A stretch of DNA of 50,604 nt from Candidatus Methanophagales archaeon (GTDB lineage: Archaea > Halobacteriota > Syntropharchaeia > Alkanophagales > Methanospirareceae). Both the position numbers and the translations under genes were made by a program. Under the pieces are notes generated by a model, which had not been told where the DNA came from, searched no databases, and saw nothing but the letters and a program-made list of their open reading frames with translations. Below are positions 2,773 to 47,764 of the stretch, piece by piece (within the stretch, counting starts at the first letter, position 1; the number at the start of each line of letters is the position of its first letter). Where the stretch lies: positions 1 to 50,604 of the forward strand of contig WSZT01000036.1 of assembly GCA_013139985.1 (NCBI GenBank), in the 5' to 3' direction.

Positions 2773-3786
2773 ATGCGATTAATACTTCCACACCCCGGGC
2801 ATTTCTCCGCTTTGAAAGAGATAATAGCAAGTAAAGAATCCAAGGGTCTGAAAGATGTAAGGGAGGTCTACATGGCCGGCTCGCCGGAAGTGATGGGGAG
2901 CGGAAGAGCGACACTATATGCACCGCTAATCGAGGATATAAAAGAGCAAACGGCATATGCGCATCAGCACAATGTAAAGCTAAATATCGCTATGAATGCC
3001 TCTTGCTTTGGTGGTTATCATCTAACGTTTGAAGGCTATAAAATGTTCAAATGGTATTTCAACGAGCTTAATAAGGCAGGCGTTGATGGCGTTACGGTGG
3101 CCGAGCCATATCTCGTAGAGCTTCTGCGTGATTCCCCGCTGGAAACGGTAATCTCATGCGTGGCGCATGTCGATTCGCCGCAACGTGCTGAATTCTTCGA
3201 GGATCTTGGCGCGGATGCGATCACCGTGGATACAAACATAAACCGGAACTTTGAGGTCTTAGAAGCAATAACGAAAGCGGTTAACTGCGACATCAGGGTA
3301 ATTGTGAATGAAGGCTGTCTTTATAAGTGCCCATTTCGGCATGCACATTTCAACCTCTTCTCGCACATAACCGCGTCATCCCTGAATGCTCGAACCCAGC
3401 CCCTGAACACTTTTGGCGACTACTATTTTGACAAGTGCATTTCTATCCGGGTAAGGGACCCCGCGCAGATTATAAGGTCGCCGTGGATAAGACCGGAAGA
3501 CATGAAGGAATATGAAGCGATAGGCATAGAAGATTTTAAGATTTCTGGTAGAGCGAATGCGGTGAACTGGATAATAAATTGCATGGCTGCATATTCGAAG
3601 GGCACGTTCGACGGTAACCTGCTTGAACTCCTCGATTGCCCATCGGAACTCCGTTATATGTTCCAGATAGATAATAAACTCCTGGACGGTAGTATAAAGC
3701 AATGGAAGAACTGCAAAAAGATATGTAATGAATGCCACTACTGCGATGAACTAACAAACAAGGTGTTGAGAGTGATAGAAAAATGA
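2773..3786 (+). CDS. Peptidase U32 family protein (paralog 1)
   Basis: U32-like core (EPYLVELLRD..., VNEGCLYKCPFRHAHFN) with CxxCxxC-type C-terminus (CKKICNECHYC); paralog at 19811-20812. Confidence 0.75.
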   Translation: MRLILPHPGHFSALKEIIASKESKGLKDVREVYMAGSPEVMGSGRATLYAPLIEDIKEQTAYAHQHNVKLNIAMNASCFGGYHLTFEGYKMFKWYFNELNKAGVDGVTVAEPYLVELLRDSPLETVISCVAHVDSPQRAEFFEDLGADAITVDTNINRNFEVLEAITKAVNCDIRVIVNEGCLYKCPFRHAHFNLFSHITASSLNARTQPLNTFGDYYFDKCISIRVRDPAQIIRSPWIRPEDMKEYEAIGIEDFKISGRANAVNWIINCMAAYSKGTFDGNLLELLDCPSELRYMFQIDNKLLDGSIKQWKNCKKICNECHYCDELTNKVLRVIEK

Positions 3787-4151
3787 AAGAAGAAATAAGT
3801 GAAGGCAGACGGAAGCTCGAGAAAGAACTGCGGGCTTTAGTGGGGAACATCTTCGTGCCGGAAGCGAAGGTATTTGGGATGGCTTGTGGCTGCGTAGGTT
3901 TCGCAGTGGATCTGAGAGGACTGCATGGCGATGATGTGGCGGTGTTCAAGGAGAAGATAAATGCGGTCCTGGAAGAGATAAGTCTCTCGGTTGGTGTAAA
4001 GCCGGAGTTCTTGTATGCGAGGAAGCTACCAGGTAGCGAAGAAGTGGTCACGCTTACTTCGCGTGAATTATGCGAGCGATGCAAAAGCGAGTTCGCAGGC
4101 TCAAAAGCAGCCCCAAGACCTGATATAGTAGTATTAAAGAAGAAGCGGTGA
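3783..4151 (+). CDS. Hypothetical protein, translationally coupled to the U32 gene
   Basis: 122-aa ORF overlapping the upstream stop by 4 nt (ATGA); no family recognised. Confidence 0.6.
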   Translation: MKEEISEGRRKLEKELRALVGNIFVPEAKVFGMACGCVGFAVDLRGLHGDDVAVFKEKINAVLEEISLSVGVKPEFLYARKLPGSEEVVTLTSRELCERCKSEFAGSKAAPRPDIVVLKKKR

Positions 4152-4307
4152 CAAACAAAATATAGAAAAGTTTTTAAAGGGGTAAAAAAGAACGTTTAAC
4201 TATAACAGCAAAAACTTCACTTTTATGTGCTAGGGACGCACAAATTATGTTGTTTGTCCATTACAAGGATATGGCTATAGGCAAAGAAGGAGGGGGAAAA
4301 GAGCGCG

Positions 4308-5909
4308 ATGGGAGAAGAGAAAGAGGTATTTATAAAAGTTAAAGGCGTGAATAAGCAATTCGAGGATAAAAAAGTATTGAAGGACATAAATCTGGATATA
4401 AAAGAGATGGAGCCTTTAGGTTTGCTCGGTAAGAGTGGCGCCGGGAAATCGGTCTTACTCCGTATGCTCCGAGGCACAGAAGAATATGCGCCGGATAGTG
4501 GTGAGATAATTTTTAGGTTGGCCTATTGCCCTTCCTGTACGTGGATAGAGGGCCCAAGCAGGGTAGGCGATAAGTGTCCGAAATGTGGTACCGAGTTTGA
4601 ATTTAAGGAAGTGAATTTCTGGCAGGATACGAGTATGAAGAGGACAATGAAGAGTGCGATTGCGATCATGCTCCAGCGCAGTTTCGCCTTGTATAGTGAC
4701 GAAGGCGTCATCTGGAATGTAATAGAAGCATTGGAGCGGGCACGATATCCAAAGAGTAAGAGGATGAAGAAGGCATATGAAATCCTGGAATCCGTAAAGA
4801 TGTTGCACCGTGTAAATATGCCTGATACAAGAGACCTCAGTGGTGGCGAGAAACAGAGAATGGTGCTTGCGAGGCAATTGGCGCTGGCTCCGATTCTGCT
4901 TTTAGCCGATGAGCCCACAGGTACGTTAGATCATGAGACAGCAAAGGTGGTGCATCGCGCACTGATAGAGACCACAAGAGGTGGAACAACATTCCTCGTC
5001 ACTTCTCATTGGCCGTATGTGATTAGGGAATTGACAGAGGAAACAGCATGGTTCGATAAGGGCGAAATAATTGAATATGGCCCGACGGATGAAGTGGTGA
5101 CTCATTTTGAGGCTCAAGTAGGCGAAATAGAGCGTGATGATTTTAAAAAGTTCGGCGACCCGATGATAAGGATAGAAAACCTAAAGAAGTATTACTTATC
5201 GGCATCGCGAGGCGTTGTGAAGGCGGTGGATGATGTCTCGTTCGAGATAAATGAGAATGAGATATTTGGTGTTGTCGGGCATAGCGGTGCGGGAAAGACG
5301 AGTTTAATGAGGATTGTAAGCCATTTAGACCCGGGGTCAGGTGGTTCTGCGTGGATAAGAGTCGGGGACAGATGGTATGAGGCATCAAAGGAGGATGCTG
5401 GTACATTCATAGAGAATGGCGTAATTGTGGGTGGTACGACCGAATGGAAATCCCATTTTGTGGGTGTCTTACATCAAGAATATAGTCTGATTCCGAAACT
5501 CACGGCCTGGGATAACCTTACGCACGGTATTGGTCTCGATATGCCAGAGGACTTAGCAACGATGAAGGTAAACTTCATGCTAAAAGGAGTGGGATTCGAA
5601 GAAGAAGAAATAGCGGAGATACTACCAAAAACGCATGATGAACTGAGCGTGGGCGAGAAACAGCGGATACTTATTGCGCAATTACTGATGAAAGAGCCTA
5701 ATATCGCGGTCCTTGATGAGCCAACCGGGACAATGGATCCGGTAACAAAGAAATACGTTGCCGAGACGATAATAAAGGCGAGGGAGAATCTGGGTACAAC
5801 TTTCGTTATTGTTACTCATGACCTTGATTTCGCAGAGAAGGTATGTGATCGAGTAGCGAAGATGGAGAATGGGAAAATCATAGAGATAGAAGATTTAAGG
5901 TCGGGTTAA
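4308..5909 (+). CDS. atwA: Methyl-coenzyme M reductase system component A2 (AtwA-like tandem ABC ATPase), copy 1
   Basis: Two ABC domains (GKSGAGKS / [22 protein letters not shown] / LSVGEKQRILIAQ) with a four-Cys insert CPSC...CPKC in the first; adjacent to mcrC. Confidence 0.9.
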   Translation: MGEEKEVFIKVKGVNKQFEDKKVLKDINLDIKEMEPLGLLGKSGAGKSVLLRMLRGTEEYAPDSGEIIFRLAYCPSCTWIEGPSRVGDKCPKCGTEFEFKEVNFWQDTSMKRTMKSAIAIMLQRSFALYSDEGVIWNVIEALERARYPKSKRMKKAYEILESVKMLHRVNMPDTRDLSGGEKQRMVLARQLALAPILLLADEPTGTLDHETAKVVHRALIETTRGGTTFLVTSHWPYVIRELTEETAWFDKGEIIEYGPTDEVVTHFEAQVGEIERDDFKKFGDPMIRIENLKKYYLSASRGVVKAVDDVSFEINENEIFGVVGHSGAGKTSLMRIVSHLDPGSGGSAWIRVGDRWYEASKEDAGTFIENGVIVGGTTEWKSHFVGVLHQEYSLIPKLTAWDNLTHGIGLDMPEDLATMKVNFMLKGVGFEEEEIAEILPKTHDELSVGEKQRILIAQLLMKEPNIAVLDEPTGTMDPVTKKYVAETIIKARENLGTTFVIVTHDLDFAEKVCDRVAKMENGKIIEIEDLRSG

Positions 5910-5959
5910 TTTCACACGGAAATTCTGTTTCCGTATATAGGAGCACAATAAAATATAAT

Positions 5960-7588
5960 ATGATGGGCGTGGAAGAAATGGGAGAAAAAGGGGTAATAGT
6001 AAAACTACAGGATATATGTAAGGAATTCGAGGGGAAAGAAGTTCTGAAGAATGTGAGTGTAGATATAAAGGAAGGGGAGTCATTGGGTCTACTTGGACGG
6101 AGTGGCTCAGGGAAATCAGCGTTGCTTCACATGCTGCGAGGTACTGAAGAATACGCACCCACAAGTGGCGAAATAATCTTCAGAGTGGCTATGTGCCCTT
6201 CATGCGACTGGGTGGATGCACCGAGTAAAGCAGGTGAGGCGTGTAATAAGTGCGGAGCAAAATTAGAATTGAAGGAAGTGAATTACTGGAAGGACAAAGA
6301 AGGAAAGAAGAAAGTGAAAAGGGCTGTTGCGATCATGCTCCAACGTACTTTTGGGTTATACAGTGATGATACAGTCATGTATAACGTAATACAGGCACTG
6401 GAGAGTAGGGATTACCCAGCAGAGAAGAAGTTTAAACGAGCTTATGATCTGTTGAAGTCGGTTAGAATGCTGCATCGTATTACCTTCCCCGCAGTTAACC
6501 TTAGTGGCGGTGAGAAACAGCGGGTAGTGCTCGCAAGGCAACTTGCATTAGATCCTATCTTACTTCTAGCAGACGAGCCCACGGGGACATTAGACTTTGA
6601 GACCGCAAAACTCGTACACAAAGCGCTGTTAGATAGTATAAAGGCGGGGATGACTATGGTTGTTACTTCCCACTGGCCTTACGTTATTAAAGAACTGTCA
6701 GAAAAGACGTTATGGCTTGAAAACGGCGAAATGGTGAAATATGGCGATTCAAAGGCGGTGGTGGAAGAGTTTGAGAGTCAGGTGGGCAAGATAGAACGTG
6801 AAGAATATACCAAAATAGGCGAGCCGAAGATAAAGATAGACCATTGTAAGAAGTATTATTATTCCATGTGGCGAGGAATGGTAAAAGCAGTGGATGATGT
6901 CACACTAACAATAAATGAGGGTGAAATATTTGGTCTCGTAGGCAAGAGTGGATCGGGAAAGACAAGCTTATCGCGGATTATAGCTCAAGTAGATCCGCTA
7001 ACGGATGGCTCTGTTCAGATACGGGTAGGCGATAGGTGGATAGAAGTGGGACGGGTGGCGGAAACGGGTGTCTGGCTTGCCTGGGGTGCGACTACGGAGG
7101 GAATGGGCGAGCAAGCGGCAGCACGGGTGGTTATGCTACATCAGGAATACTCATTATATCCGGAACACACAATATTAGCGAATCTAACCTCCTGTATCGG
7201 TTTGAAGATGCCAGAAGAGCTTGGGCGGATGAAAGCGAAGTTTGTTCTGCAAGGGGTGGGATTCAGCGAAGAAACAACGGAGGAAATACTGCCAAAAACG
7301 CATAGTGAACTGAGCGTTGGAGAAAGACAGCGTATTGCTCTTGCTCAGGTAATAATGAAGGAACCTGCAATAGCCGTGCTTGATGAGCCAACAGGCACAA
7401 TGGACCCGATAACAAAGAAATTCGTTGCCGATTCTATAAGGGCGGCACGTGAAAACCTTGGGGTGACACTCTTAATTGTCACTCACGACACGGATTTCGC
7501 TTACGATGTCTGTGATAAGATAGCGCAGATGCAGAATGGCAAGATAACGGAGATAGAAGACTTGAAATATGGTACCGAGCAAAAATAA
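5960..7588 (+). CDS. atwA: Methyl-coenzyme M reductase system component A2 (AtwA-like), copy 2
   Basis: Same architecture as copy 1 ([20 protein letters not shown]...[18 protein letters not shown]). Confidence 0.9.
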
Positions 7589-8208
7589 TGGCCGTTGGTA
7601 GAGAGACGCAGATGTTAGCCTGCAGGAAAGGGCAGGGGCTTGGGTTAGGTGGCGGTATTGCCCAGAGAGGTACATTTGCGAAAGCGTGGAAGAACGATGT
7701 AGTTGCGGTTGCGATGTCTCCGGGTACAAGGCACGTGCCAAAGCCGGTATGCGAGATAACCACGGAATTAAGGGGTAAAGGTGTATCTACCGGTGTACTA
7801 GTCTTGAATGCCGGTAATGGGACGCCGCGTGATGCACCAAGGACTGGTGGACATGGTTCAATTTTTGGATTGGAGCAAAAAGAGATAGATATAATCGGTG
7901 GGCATAAGCTTGCCGTATTACATCATGGCAACGTAAAAGAGCATTTCATCTATAAAGTGCGGCTCGAGTTGAGAAAGATCCCGATTTCTGCTATCATCCT
8001 TTGTCAAAGCCCGGTAACGTTTGAGGAGTTCGAGCAGGTAGGTGTAAGCACGAGGAATAAAGAGTGTGAAACGCCGGGTAAAGTCGTGGGTATTGTGAGT
8101 GACATTGTGAGGCGAGAGAGTGTTCCGCAAGATAAACTAGACGAAATCGTGAGCAAAGTGAGAATGTGCCTCAGGGAAATAGAAGAGAGTGAAGAAAAAA
8201 AAGCCTAA
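7588..8208 (+). CDS. mcrC: Methyl-coenzyme M reductase operon protein C (McrC)
   Basis: VGRETQMLACRKGQGLGLGGGIAQRGTFAKAW..VVAVAMSPGTRHVPKPVCEITTELRGKGVSTGVLVLNAGNGTPRDAP matches the McrC signature. Confidence 0.92.
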   Translation: MAVGRETQMLACRKGQGLGLGGGIAQRGTFAKAWKNDVVAVAMSPGTRHVPKPVCEITTELRGKGVSTGVLVLNAGNGTPRDAPRTGGHGSIFGLEQKEIDIIGGHKLAVLHHGNVKEHFIYKVRLELRKIPISAIILCQSPVTFEEFEQVGVSTRNKECETPGKVVGIVSDIVRRESVPQDKLDEIVSKVRMCLREIEESEEKKA

Positions 8209-8322
8209 ATTGATACTAACGTTCTTTACGCATTGTTTGAACTTGATACAACAGATCAAACCAAGGTGGCAAGACGTTCAATTAGTAATATATCAGAACA
8301 TTTAGCGTGAGATAAATGTTCC

Positions 8323-8886
8323 ATGGACGAAAAGGAAATAGCACTGTTGTGGGATGAAGACACAGCTTTTAAGCGGTATCTTGTGAATATGGGTTTTAAT
8401 TGTGAACTAGTAACACCGATAGTCTTAGTTGCTCCTTTCTTTTCCCTTACTGGTTATAAATTGTTAATTGTACCCGCGGGATTTGGGAATGAGACATATT
8501 CAAAGATATTGGTAGGGCTCAGAGCAAAAAGTGAACACATAAAAGATTTTGTAGAGGCGGGGGGGACACTCTTTATATTCGGTGCGCTTTCAAATAAGGA
8601 GGTATATAACTGGCTCCCGGTAAAACTCAAATATGTGATGGAGGAGAGGCGGGTAAGAATATTAGTGGTGAAGAAGCATAAAGCAGCGATGATAGTGGAA
8701 AAAGAAGAATGCATGTGTGATGGCTACTTTACGGAGGTAGGAGAAGAAGGCGAGATATTTTTAAAGGAAGAGGGAGGGAAAGCGATTTTGGCTCTCGCGG
8801 AATACGGAGCTGGTGCTATTATTGCTACAACAATCCATGAATATCCATCCAGGGAATTTATAGCGTATTGTGTGGGGAGAAGATAA
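8323..8886 (+). CDS. Hypothetical protein, possible class I glutamine amidotransferase-like fold
   Basis: YKLLIVPAGFGNETYSK...IKDFVEAGGTLFIFG resembles GATase1-like folds; family not firmly identified. Confidence 0.5.
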   Translation: MDEKEIALLWDEDTAFKRYLVNMGFNCELVTPIVLVAPFFSLTGYKLLIVPAGFGNETYSKILVGLRAKSEHIKDFVEAGGTLFIFGALSNKEVYNWLPVKLKYVMEERRVRILVVKKHKAAMIVEKEECMCDGYFTEVGEEGEIFLKEEGGKAILALAEYGAGAIIATTIHEYPSREFIAYCVGRR

Positions 8887-41587: not shown

Positions 41588-42718
41588 ATGGAAGAACGAG
41601 GCATAAGTAAAGAGGAGCTGAAATCGTTTCTCAAAGAGCAAAAGCAGAAGGATCTGACTTACCGGAAAGTTTTGAGTTCTATGTGCACGTATCCGCACGA
41701 AATAGCAGCATATGCGCATAATCTGTTCTTGGACTCGAATTTAGGTGATTCTGGGCTATTTCCAGGTACAAAAGCGATGGAAGACGAATTGATACGTATT
41801 ATCGGTGCGTTACTGGGCAATGAGAACGCACACGGCTATATCTCCACTGGTGGGACAGAATCGAATATACAGGCGATGAGAGCAATAAGAAACAGGAAAA
41901 GAAAGGAAGGACTGCAACAGATGAACATAATCGTGCCGAAAACAGCGCATTTCTCATTTGATAAAATCGAGGATCTTTTATGCCTGGAAGTAAAGAAAGC
42001 GGGATTAGACGATGAATTGAGAGTGGATGTGAATTTGGTAGAAGAATTGATAGATGATAATACAATAAGCATAGTGGGAATAGCGGGCACGACCGAATTT
42101 GGGCAGATAGATCCGATAAAGGAGCTTGCAGATATTGCCAATAATAGCGATATTTTTTTACACATTGATGCCGCTTTTGGTGGTTTTGTAATTCCGTTTT
42201 TAGATGCTGAATACCAGTTCGATTTCTCACTTGACGCGGTATCATCTATTTCCGTAGACCCGCATAAGATGGGGATGAGCACGATCCCTGCAGGATGCAT
42301 CTTGTTCCGGGACGAGTTGTATTTAGCGGATTTAGCGGTGGACACACCTTATCTGACGACAAATGAGCAGTGCTCGCTGATAGGGACGAGAAGCGGCGCA
42401 CCTGTCGCGGCTACGTACGCGGTACTCAAATATCTTGGTAGAGACGGCTTGAGGGCGATTGTAGATAACTGCATGCAGCTAACGAGGATGTTAGTGCACG
42501 GTGCAAAGGCGATGGGCATTTACCCGGTGATAGAACCGGTTATGAATGTGGTAACGTTGCGTTTTCCTGATGTTGATCGGGTGGCGAAAGCATTAGAAGC
42601 AAGAGGATGGCGAGTTTCTACGACAAGAGCGCCAAAGGCGCTTCGGTTAGTTATAATGCCGCATGTGACTGAAGATACGATAGAAATGTTTTTGAACGAT
42701 TTGGAAAATGTAAAATGA
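41588..42718 (+). CDS. mfnA: Tyrosine/aspartate decarboxylase (MfnA family)
   Basis: GYISTGGTESNIQAMRAIRN..., SISVDPHKMGMSTIPAGCILFRD. Confidence 0.93.
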   Translation: MEERGISKEELKSFLKEQKQKDLTYRKVLSSMCTYPHEIAAYAHNLFLDSNLGDSGLFPGTKAMEDELIRIIGALLGNENAHGYISTGGTESNIQAMRAIRNRKRKEGLQQMNIIVPKTAHFSFDKIEDLLCLEVKKAGLDDELRVDVNLVEELIDDNTISIVGIAGTTEFGQIDPIKELADIANNSDIFLHIDAAFGGFVIPFLDAEYQFDFSLDAVSSISVDPHKMGMSTIPAGCILFRDELYLADLAVDTPYLTTNEQCSLIGTRSGAPVAATYAVLKYLGRDGLRAIVDNCMQLTRMLVHGAKAMGIYPVIEPVMNVVTLRFPDVDRVAKALEARGWRVSTTRAPKALRLVIMPHVTEDTIEMFLNDLENVK

Positions 42719-42832
42719 AAAGTGCAAAAGTCAAAATTCAATGGATGGGTCAAGAAAAACCCTTCACTAATTAACAACGGGTTTTGGTAACACCCTTTTA
42801 TCTTTTAAGGAAACGTCTCGAAATGAAGTATC

Positions 42833-42982
42833 TTATAGTGTAAAATCTAAGTCTTCAACTGTTCTTTCAGGGGAAATAGGGATTGTAGTAGTTTTTATTT
42901 TTCTTCTAATAATTCCTACTTCTCTTTCTTCTACGATTGATTGAAAGATAATTTCAATATATTCATCTCTGAAAAACACCAT
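42833..42982 (-). CDS. Possible small protein (49 aa), unassigned
   Basis: ATG-TAA frame MVFFRDEYIEIIFQSIVEEREVGIIRRKIKTTTIPISPERTVEDLDFTL; below the ORF-track cutoff. Confidence 0.3.
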   Translation of the reverse strand: MVFFRDEYIEIIFQSIVEEREVGIIRRKIKTTTIPISPERTVEDLDFTL

Positions 42983-43457
42983 CTATATAGTTATGATGTT
43001 TTTTTTAATGTAAATGTCAGGTCGTGTAGAAACACCGGTTTGTATGAAAAATAGACCCAATATAGCATTCAAATGGAAATTTAAAGCAAGAAAATCATTA
43101 ATCTTTGCGTTTTCTCACTGTCTGACGTCATCACACAATATCCTGTATAAATAAGCGGTTATTAATAGAAATAATAGAAAACTTCTGCCCCGCTATCGCC
43201 GATATTCGTCCCCTTTCGTAAAGTAGCCTATATTATCTCCTTTCCCTTCCTTATTACTGCGAGCTTCTTCTATTTGGGTGGCGTAATCTTTTTTGGTCTA
43301 TGATTTGGGCCTGTTAATTAAACCTTCCTTTTTCGACATTCATCTCTTCGCACCTCTGTGGGTACATGGTTACGCGTCTTTAGTATTTGGCGGCATCCAC
43401 TCATTTTGGCGATCCTCTAGGGGATCATGAAAAATACGAGGCTCTTATTGCCTTCTT

Positions 43458-44459
43458 TCATTCTTTGTAAGATTCCTTCTTTGTTAGTACCCAATAGACC
43501 GACTCTGCCATGTGACGAGCTGTTGCAACAATTGCCACCTTTTCGTCCCTTCTTGCTTTTAGCCGATTGTAGATTCTCTGGAAGCGATTTGGTGTTGCTG
43601 AATGAACTGCCGCTCTTGTACTCTGTATTAAGGCCCATCTTAGAAATCCGTTGCTATGCTTGTTTATGTGCCCGTACCTTGTATAGTCTCTGGATTGTTC
43701 GACCTTTGGTGCAAATCCTGCGTAACTAACGAAACTTTTCGGTTTGTTGAATCTCTCTATTTCTCCTAGCTCACTCAGGGCAAGTAATGCATTGTGGAAT
43801 CCTATACCGACTATACTCATCAACCCCATTGCCTCTTCTGTTACTTCAGCCTTCTCGCGTAGGACTACCTCTACCTCATTGATCTTCTTACCTAGAATTC
43901 CCCGCACTTCCAGGTAAACATCTAAAGCGGTCCTCCTTGCTTCTTGCAGTTCCACTTCTTTCAGAAACACCATCCCTTTCCTTCCAAATAGGTCGCTTAC
44001 CTTTGGCGGTTGAACACCCTCTATCGCTAGCAGTGCATGTACTTTATTCTTTATTGAAGTTCTTAAACGAACAAAGCTGGCTCTATGTCGCACTATCGTT
44101 CTTAGATCCCTTATATCTTCCCCTGGAACGTAGCTCTCCGGTAAGTAATCCATCCTCAACAATTGTGCTAACACCCTCGCATCCACTTTGTCCGTCTTCA
44201 CATGCTTCTTCGCAAACGGCTTGACATAAACTGGGTGTGCCAAATGCACCTCTATCCTCTTGCCATCCAGGTACTCATATACAAAGATACCGGACGTCAA
44301 AGCCTCGATCGCCACTTTTGCTCCTTCTGGCAGAGTGCTTGCAAATTCGTTCAAACCTTATCGTGTCGTTGCAAATCTGCATTTCTTCACTTCTGTTCCC
44401 TGACGGTCTACCATCGAATAGTAGCTCATCTTTTTATGTACCTCCAATCCTATATCCAT
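43458..44459 (-). pseudogene. IS110-family transposase interrupted by an in-frame TAA
   Basis: N-terminus MDIGLEVHKKMSYYSMVDRQGTEVKKCRFATTR, then TAA (44358-44360), then same frame GLNEFASTLPEGAKVAIEALTSG...KTDKVDARVLAQLL...IVGIGFHNALLAL...FVSYAGFAPKVEQS. Confidence 0.85.
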
Positions 44460-44482
44460 ATTGCACCTCCTTCTTCTCCGAT

Positions 44483-44863
44483 TTATAAGGAGGTGTTTTT
44501 CATGTAGTCATCTTCCACTTTTCTAAAAGCTAAAATTACTTTGTCATCCTCAGGTATGTAGTTATCTGTGTTGGTCTTTGGTATTTTTACTACTTTTCTA
44601 TATTTGATTAAACTTTCCTCATCCATCAAACTAAAAGCCTCATAGTATTTCAGTAAATCCCTAATTCCCATGCAAAAATGCCTTTTGCCTTTCTCAGTGC
44701 TTTCTATTAATGAAAATAATTCTGTTGGATTTGAAATACGTATAGTTAGATATTTATTAAGGTAAGATACCATGTCCTCTACATCTTCAATTGAACATTT
44801 TGATTTCATCCAAGCGGTAAATCCTTCTTTAGTGCTTTCATAATTGATTTCTTTTAATTCCAA
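44483..44863 (-). pseudogene. N-terminal fragment of an archaeal SSV-type tyrosine recombinase/integrase
   Basis: ELKEINYESTKEGFTAWMKSK...YLNKYLTIRISNPTELF..KVVKIPKTNTDNYIPEDDKVILAFRKVED resembles archaeal integrase N-domains; catalytic domain absent; frame continues open upstream through the tRNA-Gln segment. Confidence 0.65.
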
Positions 44864-44907
44864 GGCCTTTGGAGCCTGTGACAGGGGTTTGAATCCTCTC
44901 GGGACTA
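44863..44907 (+). other. tRNA-Gln(TTG) 3'-half fragment (attachment-site scar)
   Basis: AGGC-CTTTGGA-GCCT anticodon arm with TTG, TGAC-type variable region, AGGGG-TTTGAAT-CCTCT T-arm, CGGGACT-A 3' acceptor; no 5' half. Confidence 0.75.
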
Positions 44908-44935
44908 TCTCATGACCTTTGACTTCGGAATTCTA

Positions 44936-47764
44936 TCACGTCCGAAATAGAGCTGTTAAGTAATTCTGCCAGGGCACCATCAGCGGATGTTTATCTTTAT
45001 CTGAATCTATGCGGTAAGGGGAATCACCAAGTCCATCGCCATTCCCGTCTGTTCCTGTGTAGTCGCCCCAGTAGTTGCCCGTGTAGTTTGTGTACGTGTT
45101 GCCGTTGTAGCTGTACGTTATTTCTGATGTTGAGTTCCAGACATTGGTTGATTCGTTAGAATAAGCGTTATTAGCGTTATCTATGAAATTGTTAAGGTAT
45201 ATTTCATTATTGTTTGAATTCTTGAGGTAGATGCCCTTGTTTTCATTGTTCTTAGCCGTGTTATTTGCTATTATATTCTCGTTTGAACTCCTAAGTTCAA
45301 TACCTTTGTCTTTATTAGAGTTTGCAATGTTATCTCGTATCTCATTGTTGTAGGACTGCGAGAGATAAATACCCGACTCCTTCAAGCTATTTGAGGCATT
45401 ATTCATTAATATTTTATTGTATGTGGAACTACCTGTTAATATAATCCCATAATTCTTATTTGCTAACACGCTGTTATAACAAATAGTGTTTCGACTCGAT
45501 TTAGACAGAAATATGCCATGATAGTTGCCGGAAACAATATTGTTAGAGATATTACAGTTTGTTGCACCCGAGATAAGAATGCCACACTTTTTTGATGCCT
45601 CTTCTATTGTGAACCCGGTTATGTTCACGTAGTCTGCGGTTATATTGAATATATGACTATTGGCAGCACGAACAATCGTTGAATCCGCTCCAGTCTCCGA
45701 TTGAATTGTTAATCGCTTGTATACGTTTATGTTCTCGGTGTAAGTTCCGGGCTCTACTGTTACTGTATCACCGTCCTTAGTATCCGAATCGTCTATTGCA
45801 GCTTGAATAGTGTAGAAGTGCTTGCCTGTGTTGATGTTATGAACACGGAATTCTGTTAGTGGCGTGAAGTAAATCTCCCAGGGCACAATCAGAGGATAAT
45901 CGTCTTTATCTGTATCTATGCTGTAAGGGGAATCGCCGAGTCCATCGCCATTCCCGTCTGTTCCGGTATAGTCGCTCCAATAGTTCCCCATGTAATGTGA
46001 GTATGTGTTGCCGTTGTAGAAGTAGGTTATTTCTGATGGGGAGTTCCAGTCGTTGGTGGATTCGTTAGAATAAGCGTTATTAGCGTTATTTATGAAATTG
46101 TTAAGATATATTTTGTTGTTGTTTGAATTCTCGAGGTAGATGCCTTTTTTTTCATTGTTCTTAGCAGTGTTGTTTGTTATTGTGTTCTCGTTTGAAGTCC
46201 AAAGGCCAATACCCTGGTAATGGTTAGAATTTGCAATGTTATTTTGTATCTCGTTATTGTTAGATGAGCTTAATGATATCCCATGATACTTAACATTATT
46301 TGAAACATCGTTATCAATTATCCTGTTGTCACTCGAATTCTTGAGGTAGATACCAGAGTTTGTATTATTTTTAGCACTATTATTTGCTATTATGTTCTCG
46401 TTTGAACTCCTAAGTTCAATACCTTCGTCTTTATTAGAGTTTGCAATGTTATTTCGTATCTCATTGTTGTTAGCGGAGTTTAAATATATGCCATCGTAGT
46501 TAGTACTGTTTGAGGCGTTATTACCAATTACCCTGTTGTAGTCTGACGCATTGAGGCGGATACCTCTGTATCCATTGCCATTAGCCATATTGTATGCTAT
46601 CGTGTTGCTGTCACTTGAAATCCAGAGTACAATACCATTGTAATGGTTATAGTTTGCGGTGTTATTTCGTAGCTCGTTATTGCTTGAGGCGATTAACTCT
46701 ATCCCATTGTAGTTAGCACTGTTTGAGGCATCGTTATCCATTATTCTATTGTCGCGTGAATTCTTGAGGTAGATACCAGAGTTTGTATTATTTTTAGCAG
46801 TGTTATTTGCTATTATGTTCTCGTTTGAACTCCTAAGTTCAATACCTTTGTCTTTATTAGAGTTTGCAATGTTATCTTGTATCTCATTGTTGTTAGCGAA
46901 GTTTAAATATATTCCATCGTAGTTAGTACTGTTTGAGGCGTTATTACCAATTATCCTGTTGTTGTCTGAAGCATTGATGCGGATACCTCTGTTTCCATTG
47001 CCATTGGCCGTGTTGTATGCAATAGTGTTGTTGTCACTTGAAGTCCAGAGTCCAATACCCTGGTAATGGTTATAGTTTGCAACGTTATTACGAATCTCGT
47101 TATTGTTTGATTCGCTTAAGTATATACCCTGGTAGTTAAGATTGTTTGAGGCGTCATTACCAATTATCCTGTTGTCGTTTGAGTCTTGAAGGAAGATGCC
47201 AGTATTTCCATTGTACATAACCTTGTTATTTATGAGCATACTATTGCTCGAAGAAGACAGACGAATGCCTTGGTCGTTGTTGCCTTTTACCACGTTGTTC
47301 GTGAGCGAGTTGTTGCTCGAATGATACAGGTAGATACCACGGTAGTTGTTCGATGCGTTGTTATCAGAGATGATGCAATGTTCCGCTCTGTAGAGGTATA
47401 TTCCACCTTTATAGTCTCCTGTTGCACCTGTTACAGTAAATTCAGTTATATTCACATAATCTGCAGTTACCGCAAAAACGTGGTCGCTTGTGTTTGCTGC
47501 CTGAACAATCGTGGAATCATAGCCGTTCTCTGATTTTATGGTCAAATGATTCACGTTTACATCAACGTTTTCGTTGTAAGTTCCATCTCTCACAATGATA
47601 GTGTCGCCTGCGTTCGCGTTATCTATCGCCTCCTGGATTGATTCGCCGGGATTAACATAATGCTGTTGTGCTGCGGATATGGCTCCAAAATTCAGGAATG
47701 CCAGCGTAGCGATTAGAACTGCAAATAGCAATGCTGTCCCAATTTTTCCTCTTTCGTGTTTCAT
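44936..47764 (-). CDS. Large exported right-handed beta-helix (NosD/PbH1-repeat) protein
   Basis: Signal peptide; many NNxI..N..A..N..GIYL repeats; two NNFINNANNAYSNESTN.WNS..EITY.YNGNTY...GNYW.DYTGTDGNGDGLGDSPY modules. Confidence 0.9.
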   Translation of the reverse strand: MKHERGKIGTALLFAVLIATLAFLNFGAISAAQQHYVNPGESIQEAIDNANAGDTIIVRDGTYNENVDVNVNHLTIKSENGYDSTIVQAANTSDHVFAVTADYVNITEFTVTGATGDYKGGIYLYRAEHCIISDNNASNNYRGIYLYHSSNNSLTNNVVKGNNDQGIRLSSSSNSMLINNKVMYNGNTGIFLQDSNDNRIIGNDASNNLNYQGIYLSESNNNEIRNNVANYNHYQGIGLWTSSDNNTIAYNTANGNGNRGIRINASDNNRIIGNNASNSTNYDGIYLNFANNNEIQDNIANSNKDKGIELRSSNENIIANNTAKNNTNSGIYLKNSRDNRIMDNDASNSANYNGIELIASSNNELRNNTANYNHYNGIVLWISSDSNTIAYNMANGNGYRGIRLNASDYNRVIGNNASNSTNYDGIYLNSANNNEIRNNIANSNKDEGIELRSSNENIIANNSAKNNTNSGIYLKNSSDNRIIDNDVSNNVKYHGISLSSSNNNEIQNNIANSNHYQGIGLWTSNENTITNNTAKNNEKKGIYLENSNNNKIYLNNFINNANNAYSNESTNDWNSPSEITYFYNGNTYSHYMGNYWSDYTGTDGNGDGLGDSPYSIDTDKDDYPLIVPWEIYFTPLTEFRVHNINTGKHFYTIQAAIDDSDTKDGDTVTVEPGTYTENINVYKRLTIQSETGADSTIVRAANSHIFNITADYVNITGFTIEEASKKCGILISGATNCNISNNIVSGNYHGIFLSKSSRNTICYNSVLANKNYGIILTGSSTYNKILMNNASNSLKESGIYLSQSYNNEIRDNIANSNKDKGIELRSSNENIIANNTAKNNENKGIYLKNSNNNEIYLNNFIDNANNAYSNESTNVWNSTSEITYSYNGNTYTNYTGNYWGDYTGTDGNGDGLGDSPYRIDSDKDKHPLMVPWQNYLTALFRT

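What the first reader, a model, noticed from the sequence alone, without database searches (positions are those of the whole stretch)
44483..44907. Scar of an SSV-type integrated element in tRNA-Gln(TTG)
The plus strand holds only the 3' half of a tRNA-Gln gene (anticodon arm through discriminator). On the opposite strand the integrase frame runs open through it, as EVKGHEIVPRGFKPLSQAPKALELKEINY..., with no start codon upstream before a TAG. In SSV-type integrases the attP core lies inside the 5' part of int and matches a tRNA 3' half, and integration splits int. This geometry fits an int(C)-side junction whose catalytic part has since been lost. The element should have extended to lower coordinates, where an IS110 copy now sits.
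Basis: partly seen in the sequence, partly recalled or inferred. Interest (0 to 1): 0.68.

Follow-up and report, generated by a model that had tools for sequence, protein, structure and literature searches.

The report
Integration scar splitting an archaeal integrase gene
This is the right-hand scar left where a virus- or plasmid-like element inserted into a glutamine tRNA gene of a methane-oxidising archaeon, cutting its own integrase gene in two; the two halves now sit at two places in the genome that were rearranged afterwards, which is a known kind of event in a new host group.

Summary
Window 44864-44907 (+) is the 3' half of tRNA-Gln(TTG). On the other strand an open frame runs through it into a 120-aa integrase core-binding fragment (44503-44863), cut by an IS110-family insertion at about 42970-44502. 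The host is a Methanophagales (ANME-1) MAG. Its intact tRNA-Gln lies on contig C237, followed by the matching int(N) half in the same frame. Two same-genus genomes (G003, G004) keep the empty site mre11-tRNA-Gln-NosD. The window is therefore the int(C)-side junction (attR) of an SSV-type ("suicidal", type I) integrase, closest to the pT26-2/Archaeoglobaceae branch: 66 bits against that family, at most 11 in 2000 shuffles.

One addition: the element body is gone, and its two ends now join formerly separate loci (mfnA|NosD on C124, mre11-tRNA-Gln|lhr on C237). In relatives mfnA lies next to lhr, and mre11 next to NosD. So a reciprocal chromosomal rearrangement ran through the element. Sister scars exist at tRNA-Glu and tRNA-Val in the genus; no intact copy was found in 53 genomes of the order. 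How the rearrangement happened (IS, homologous, or integrase-driven) is unresolved. A known kind in a new host group, with a modest twist.

The parts
44864..44907 (+). 3' half of tRNA-Gln(TTG): anticodon stem 3' of the crossover, anticodon loop, T arm, acceptor 3' strand, discriminator; the attR copy of the att core
   Evidence: Identical to the intact gene on C237 except T-loop C to T; not called by ARAGORN; Rfam 18.3 bits, below the cutoff of 29
44503..44863 (-). int(C) remnant: about 120 aa, core-binding (SAM-like) region of an SSV-type integrase; the catalytic part is missing
   Evidence: PHROG 5127 E=1.5e-5; 66 bits against a pT26-2-like HMM versus at most 11 in 2000 shuffles; 65% aa identity to a sister remnant at a tRNA-Glu half on own C29
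44483..44932 (-). Whole open frame through the tRNA half; no start codon between the upstream TAG (44933-44935) and the tRNA
42970..44502 (-). IS110/IS1111-type insertion cutting the int(C) remnant; ends TGAAAAACACC / GGTGTTTTTCA; transposase ORF 43458-44354 lacks its first ~50 profile positions
   Evidence: Pfam DEDD_Tnp_IS110 and Transposase_20; inverted ends; left end shared with other copies in the genus
42719..42969 (.). 251 bp between mfnA and the IS, unassigned; holds most of a 49-aa ORF (42836-42982, -) seen only in G000 and G002; starts with a dispersed ~40-bp motif
41588..42718 (+). mfnA (tyrosine/aspartate decarboxylase-like host gene); in relatives it borders the attH-like, MQRNVI and lhr genes, not NosD
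44908..44935 (.). Host flank directly 3' of the tRNA; matches the G004 empty site, unlike the C237 attL flank
   Evidence: alignment A4
44936..47764 (-). NosD-like beta-helix surface protein gene; original downstream neighbour of tRNA-Gln in G003 and G004
   Evidence: G004:C39 matches window 44864-45748 at 90% over 885 bp; G003:C126 matches at 85%

Best explanation
The site is attR, the int(C)-side junction of a mobile element that carried a self-splitting (SSV-type, type I, 'suicidal') tyrosine integrase. Step 1 (shown by comparison): the element recombined with tRNA-Gln(TTG) in the anticodon arm. The host's 5' half kept a complete tRNA using the element's 3' half, and int(N) followed it (now on contig C237). 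The host's own 3' half was left next to int(C) (the window). Step 2 (shown): int is split. Both halves lie antisense to the tRNA and in the same frame through it; int(N) carries a ribbon-helix-helix-like domain and int(C) the core-binding region. Step 3 (shown as an end state, order inferred): the element body and the catalytic part of int were lost, an IS110-family element cut int(C), and the unconstrained tRNA half decayed (C56 to T). Step 4 (end state shown, mechanism inferred): a reciprocal rearrangement through the element joined mfnA to the attR side and lhr to the attL side. It was probably an inversion by IS-mediated or homologous recombination, as described between integrated pT26-2-type plasmids in Thermococcus.
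For: Intact tRNA-Gln in own C237. Empty sites in G003 and G004 with mre11-tRNA-Gln-NosD contiguous. Beyond the tRNA the window follows the host flank, while C237 follows a different, element-derived flank. The int(N) ORF on C237 is in frame with the tRNA peptide and homologous to int(N) remnants next to tRNA-Glu in G003, G001 and G004 and next to tRNA-Val in G003. The fragment fits the SSV/pT26-2 integrase family. A full-length relative in an Archaeoglobaceae MAG has PF16795 (E=1e-44), an RHH-like N-terminus, and matches the SSV1 Int catalytic structures. At tRNA-Glu in G004 both scars lie 3.8 kb apart on one contig. Junction replicated in G002:C84. Reciprocal exchange seen against G001, G003 and G002:C112.
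Against: No element body survives, so its nature (virus or plasmid) is unknown. The int(N) ORF on C237 ends at an in-frame TGA four codons before the tRNA half, so the reading through is not perfect there; the G003 tRNA-Glu copy does read through at that point but has a stop further up. RHH profile hits of int(N) are weak (HicB 0.024, Arc-like 0.011). The C237 junction (int(N)-lhr) has no second genome to confirm it. The catalytic residues are absent from the window copy.
Confidence: 0.92

Rival explanations
1. Integrase-driven chromosomal exchange. An intact copy of the integrase gene (attP inside it) sat between mfnA and lhr and recombined directly with tRNA-Gln far away, so that one site-specific event both split int and swapped the chromosome arms.
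For: The two junctions are exactly the reciprocal products such an event would give, with almost nothing of an element left on either side (int(N) plus at most 180 bp on C237). A related integrase, Int-pTN3, catalyses chromosomal inversions (PMC5495485).
Against: No genome shows an intact int, or any att, between mfnA and lhr (G001, G003, G002:C112). Integration at the tRNA followed by a second recombination gives the same end state, so the sequence does not favour this reading.
Confidence: 0.2
2. A stray tRNA fragment: partial duplication of tRNA-Gln moved by the IS110 or by illegitimate recombination, with the open antisense frame a coincidence.
For: An IS110 lies close by, and tRNA fragments do occur (general knowledge).
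Against: The antisense frame encodes a significant integrase domain. Empty sites show the tRNA half is the original copy in its original place, contiguous with NosD. The same arrangement recurs at tRNA-Glu in three genomes.
Confidence: 0.03
3. Assembly chimera: the contig joins unrelated pieces at the integrase or the IS.
For: MAG of 248 contigs with signs of strain variants: C29 and C118 carry alternative versions of one locus, and G002:C112 carries the un-rearranged mfnA neighbourhood.
Against: G002:C84, from another MAG (CSMAG_2623), carries mfnA-IS110-int(C)-tRNA half-NosD at 97% identity over 11 kb. The att join itself matches the empty-site logic base by base.
Confidence: 0.04
4. A functional split tRNA gene half (trans-spliced archaeal tRNA) rather than a scar.
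For: Archaea with split tRNAs exist, and a model of tRNA gene disruption from an archaeal population has been published (PMC3293823, listed; title and abstract only).
Against: A complete tRNA-Gln(TTG) exists in the genome, and the half has lost invariant C56 in both genomes that carry it.
Confidence: 0.01

Closest known systems
pT26-2-type suicidal integrases (plasmids pT26-2 and pGE2; Archaeoglobaceae relatives, provirus ApPV1)
   Same: Same core-binding domain (HMM of these gives 66 bits to the fragment). RHH-like N-terminus, then a tRNA-coded peptide, then core and PF16795 catalytic domain in full-length members. Type I: gene split on integration (PMC6972569, PMC8371274).
   Different: The window copy is a remnant without catalytic part or element body. 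The host is Methanophagales (ANME-1). Identity to the full-length Archaeoglobaceae integrase is 28% over the fragment.
SSV1 integrase and its scars in Sulfolobales (type I int(N)/int(C) remnants)
   Same: Integration site inside the 5' part of int (annotated at SSV1 int codons ~64-78); int(C) left at the tRNA half.
   Different: The SSV1 N-terminal part does not look like the RHH-type int(N) here; SSV1 Int scores 98.7 bits against the pT26-2-like HMM, so a distant relative only.
TKV2/TKV3 of Thermococcus kodakarensis (mixed att sites after inversion)
   Same: Integrated type I elements whose att junctions were separated from each other by a chromosomal inversion (PMC6972569, PMC8371274).
   Different: There both integrated elements are still present and the inversion lies between two related elements. 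Here the bodies are gone and the other breakpoint (mfnA-lhr) shows no element.
pTN3 integrase of Thermococcus nautili
   Same: Type I integrase; its activity can invert chromosomes (PMC5495485).
   Different: Uses the tRNA 5' half as attB (PMC8371274); only distantly similar in sequence (28% to the full-length relative).

Membership tests
SSV-type / type I (suicidal) archaeal integrase, as a remnant | att core is a tRNA 3' half lying inside the integrase reading frame | tested here: met
   44-nt tRNA-Gln 3' half inside the open int frame
SSV-type / type I (suicidal) archaeal integrase, as a remnant | Integration splits int: int(N) at the intact tRNA, int(C) at the tRNA half, same frame | tested here: met
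   C237 int(N) next to intact tRNA-Gln; G003 tRNA-Glu int(N) and int(C) in the same frame. C237 has one in-frame TGA before the tRNA.
SSV-type / type I (suicidal) archaeal integrase, as a remnant | Empty site in a relative: intact tRNA contiguous with the right flank | tested here: met
   G004:C39 and G003:C126
SSV-type / type I (suicidal) archaeal integrase, as a remnant | Sequence similarity of the fragment to the N-terminal/core-binding region of the family | tested here: met
   66 bits vs at most 11 in 2000 shuffles; PHROG 5127
SSV-type / type I (suicidal) archaeal integrase, as a remnant | Catalytic domain PF16795 with R..HxxR..Y | tested here: inconclusive
   Lost in the window copy (IS110 cuts before it). 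A variant on own C118 still reads LLAFSGIRLREA, the first catalytic Arg box. Full-length relative: PF16795 E=1e-44.
SSV-type / type I (suicidal) archaeal integrase, as a remnant | Recombinase activity on the tRNA | not testable with these tools
   Needs biochemistry on an intact relative
pT26-2 plasmid family (element type) | Conserved core genes of the pT26-2 plasmids in the element | tested here: not met
   No element body remains on C124 or C237; only the integrase resembles this family, so the element is not filed as a pT26-2 plasmid
Integrase-mediated chromosomal inversion (pTN3-like) | Reciprocal exchange of chromosomal flanks at the recombination sites | tested here: inconclusive
   Reciprocal flanks shown, but whether the integrase, an IS or homologous recombination did it cannot be told, nor whether it is an inversion, because the contigs are not ordered

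The most novel reading that the evidence does not exclude
A self-splitting integrase acted as a chromosome rearranger in ANME-1. One site-specific crossover between an integrase gene lying between mfnA and lhr and the tRNA-Gln gene swapped chromosome arms and destroyed the enzyme in the same step. int(N)/int(C) scars at several tRNAs would then be marks of repeated rearrangements in this genus.
Probability: 0.18. Interest if true: 0.6.

Novelty: new member of a known kind. Interest (0 to 1): 0.42.

Why it matters
It documents type I (self-splitting) integrase scars in Methanophagales (ANME-1). No paper in the searched library combines the words Methanophagales, integrase and tRNA. It shows that these scars can mark breakpoints of chromosomal rearrangements, as in Thermococcus. 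The near-identical int(N) halves beside tRNA-Gln and tRNA-Val, and the related int(C) halves at Gln and Glu, also give natural material for the question of how such integrases change their tRNA target.

Tried and rejected
Viral contig collection with the fragment and with the alignment: no relative. Phage records with the fragment alone: no match; the full-length Archaeoglobaceae relative was needed to reach pT26-2, SSV and provirus integrases. Pfam on the fragment: nothing. Looked for the missing catalytic part on the far side of the IS110 (42690-43300, six frames, tblastn with G046 and C118 pieces): not there. Looked for an intact integrase between mfnA and lhr in G001, G003 and G002:C112: none. 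Searched 53 genomes of the order for an intact copy: only remnants. Tried to learn the relative orientation of the two loci from more contiguous family members: in G012, G013 and G029 they lie on different contigs (the mre11 match in G013 is weak), so inversion versus excision stays open.

Full report
Observation. The window is the whole contig C124 of a MAG of 2.13 Mb in 248 contigs. Named relatives place it in Methanophagales, i.e. ANME-1 (G002 = CSMAG_2623, G003 = CONS3730B06UFb1). At 44864-44907 (+) lies the 3' half of a tRNA-Gln(TTG). ARAGORN finds no gene there, and Rfam's tRNA model reaches only 18.3 bits, below its cutoff. On the minus strand the frame is open from a TAG at 44933-44935, through the tRNA half, to the end of a fragment that continues LELKEINYESTKEGFTAWMKSK.... 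There is no start codon before the tRNA.

It is an integrase. The fragment hits PHROG 5127 'integrase', E = 1.5e-5. I built an HMM from seven pT26-2-like/Archaeoglobaceae integrases and scored the fragment without its tRNA-coded residues. It gives 66 bits over model positions 44-155; SSV1 and pTN3 integrases, as positive controls, give 99 and 97; the best of 2000 shuffles gives 11. The full-length relative in an Archaeoglobaceae MAG (330 aa) carries PF16795 (E = 1e-44) and an RHH-like N-terminus (CcdA, 2e-4), and finds the SSV1 integrase structures 3uxu, 3vcf and 4dks. The window copy ends before the first catalytic arginine.

The partner and the empty sites. The only intact tRNA-Gln(TTG) found in the genome is on contig C237. 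Directly downstream of it, antisense and in the same frame as the tRNA-coded peptide, is a 99-aa ORF. It is homologous to ORFs in the same position next to tRNA-Glu in G003, G001 and G004 and next to tRNA-Val in G003. This is int(N). In G003 and G004 tRNA-Gln is followed directly by the NosD-like gene that stands at 44936 of the window, and preceded by mre11, which stands before tRNA-Gln on C237. The five-way alignment shows where the pieces part. Left of the anticodon stem the window is integrase while the others are tRNA. Right of the tRNA the window follows the host flank as in G004, whereas C237 has a different flank. This is what a crossover in the anticodon arm gives. The tRNA half in the window and in G002 carries T in place of the invariant C56, as expected of a copy no longer used (established tRNA knowledge).

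The IS110-family element spans about 42970-44502. Past it, and past 251 unassigned bases, stands mfnA, a host gene. In G001, G003 and G002:C112 mfnA is followed by (an attH-like gene, intact in G002:C112, decayed in G003, absent in G001, then) the MQRNVI gene and lhr. The name MQRNVI is a label for an unnamed secreted-protein-like gene, after its first residues. On C237 it is int(N) that is followed by the MQRNVI gene and lhr. So the two ends of the element join four flanks crosswise: mfnA with NosD, and mre11-tRNA-Gln with lhr. The attH-like gene that lay between is not found in the own genome. The C124 junction recurs in G002:C84 at 97% over 11 kb, so it is not an assembly artefact; the C237 junction has only one witness. 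Integration at the tRNA followed by a rearrangement through the element, or an integrase gene at mfnA recombining with the tRNA, give the same end state. Inversions between integrated type I elements (TKV2/TKV3; PMC6972569, PMC8371274) and by a type I integrase itself (pTN3; PMC5495485) are both on record. I hold the first order more likely, because no relative has an integrase at mfnA and an IS sits at one junction.

A family of scars. The same integrase left int(C) at a tRNA-Glu half in own C29, G002:C35 and G003:C12. In G004 the tRNA-Glu with its int(N) trace and a 19-bp remnant of the other tRNA end lie about 3.8 kb apart, with the element remnant between them. Own contig C118 holds a variant in which the tRNA 3' end runs directly into the catalytic region. 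int(N) next to tRNA-Val in G003 is 90% identical in DNA over 113 bp to int(N) next to tRNA-Gln here, so nearly the same int(N) has used two different tRNAs. Among 53 genomes of the order no intact copy was found; MAG incompleteness limits that statement.

Verdict. The finding is right, and the thing is of a known kind: an attR scar of an SSV-type (suicidal) integrase. New are the host group, the set of scars at three tRNAs, and their link to a chromosomal rearrangement. The element itself is lost and its type unknown.

Noticed in passing
L080 (G002:C112) 8150-8509 versus L021 (G002:C84) 6967-7323: G002 holds two continuations of mfnA: the ancestral one (attH-like, MQRNVI, lhr) and the rearranged one. 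The last 136 bp of C112 are identical to C84, with 7 differences after that; this may be a strain mixture, i.e. a segregating rearrangement.
   Followed up: partly
L092 (own C118) 1-206: A tRNA-Glu 3' end runs straight into the integrase catalytic region (KIILAFEKVSDTRYRTLFKLLAFSGIRLREA...): int(C) with an internal deletion, a variant of the locus on C29.
   Followed up: partly
L086 (G003:C1) 6107-6264: int(N) remnant beside tRNA-Val(TAC), 90% identical in DNA over 113 bp to the int(N) beside tRNA-Gln on own C237: the same int(N) with a different tRNA target.
   Followed up: partly
L088 (G004:C31) 2807-6750: About 3.8-kb remnant of an element between tRNA-Glu with an int(N) trace and a 19-bp remnant of the other tRNA end, next to a DUF488-like gene; contains a methyltransferase-like and two secreted-protein-like ORFs.
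   Followed up: partly
L087 (own C109) 3039-3460: Own tRNA-Glu has lost int(N) and is followed by unrelated DNA, while the int(C) side is on C29/C118: perhaps a second rearranged scar.
   Followed up: no
L011 (G036:C149) 260-824: Integrase relic with three stops close to a tRNA-Gly(GCC) in another family of the order.
   Followed up: no
L024 (G007:C146) 4073-4345: tRNA-Glu half, 50 aa of integrase core, then a 41-aa tail that is 73% identical to the Archaeoglobaceae integrase C-terminus: int(C) with its middle deleted.
   Followed up: no
window 42704-42760: A ~40-bp motif right after mfnA (AAAGTGCAAAAGTCAAAATTCAA...) is dispersed in many contigs of all five genomes of the genus, also after mfnA in G001.
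   Followed up: no
window 42836-42982 (-): 49-aa ORF between mfnA and the IS110, found only in G000 and G002 among the 59 genomes searched.
   Followed up: partly
L083 (G004:C75) 3040-3588: A NosD-like paralogue (about 67% DNA identity) lies close to the MQRNVI remnant in G004.
   Followed up: no
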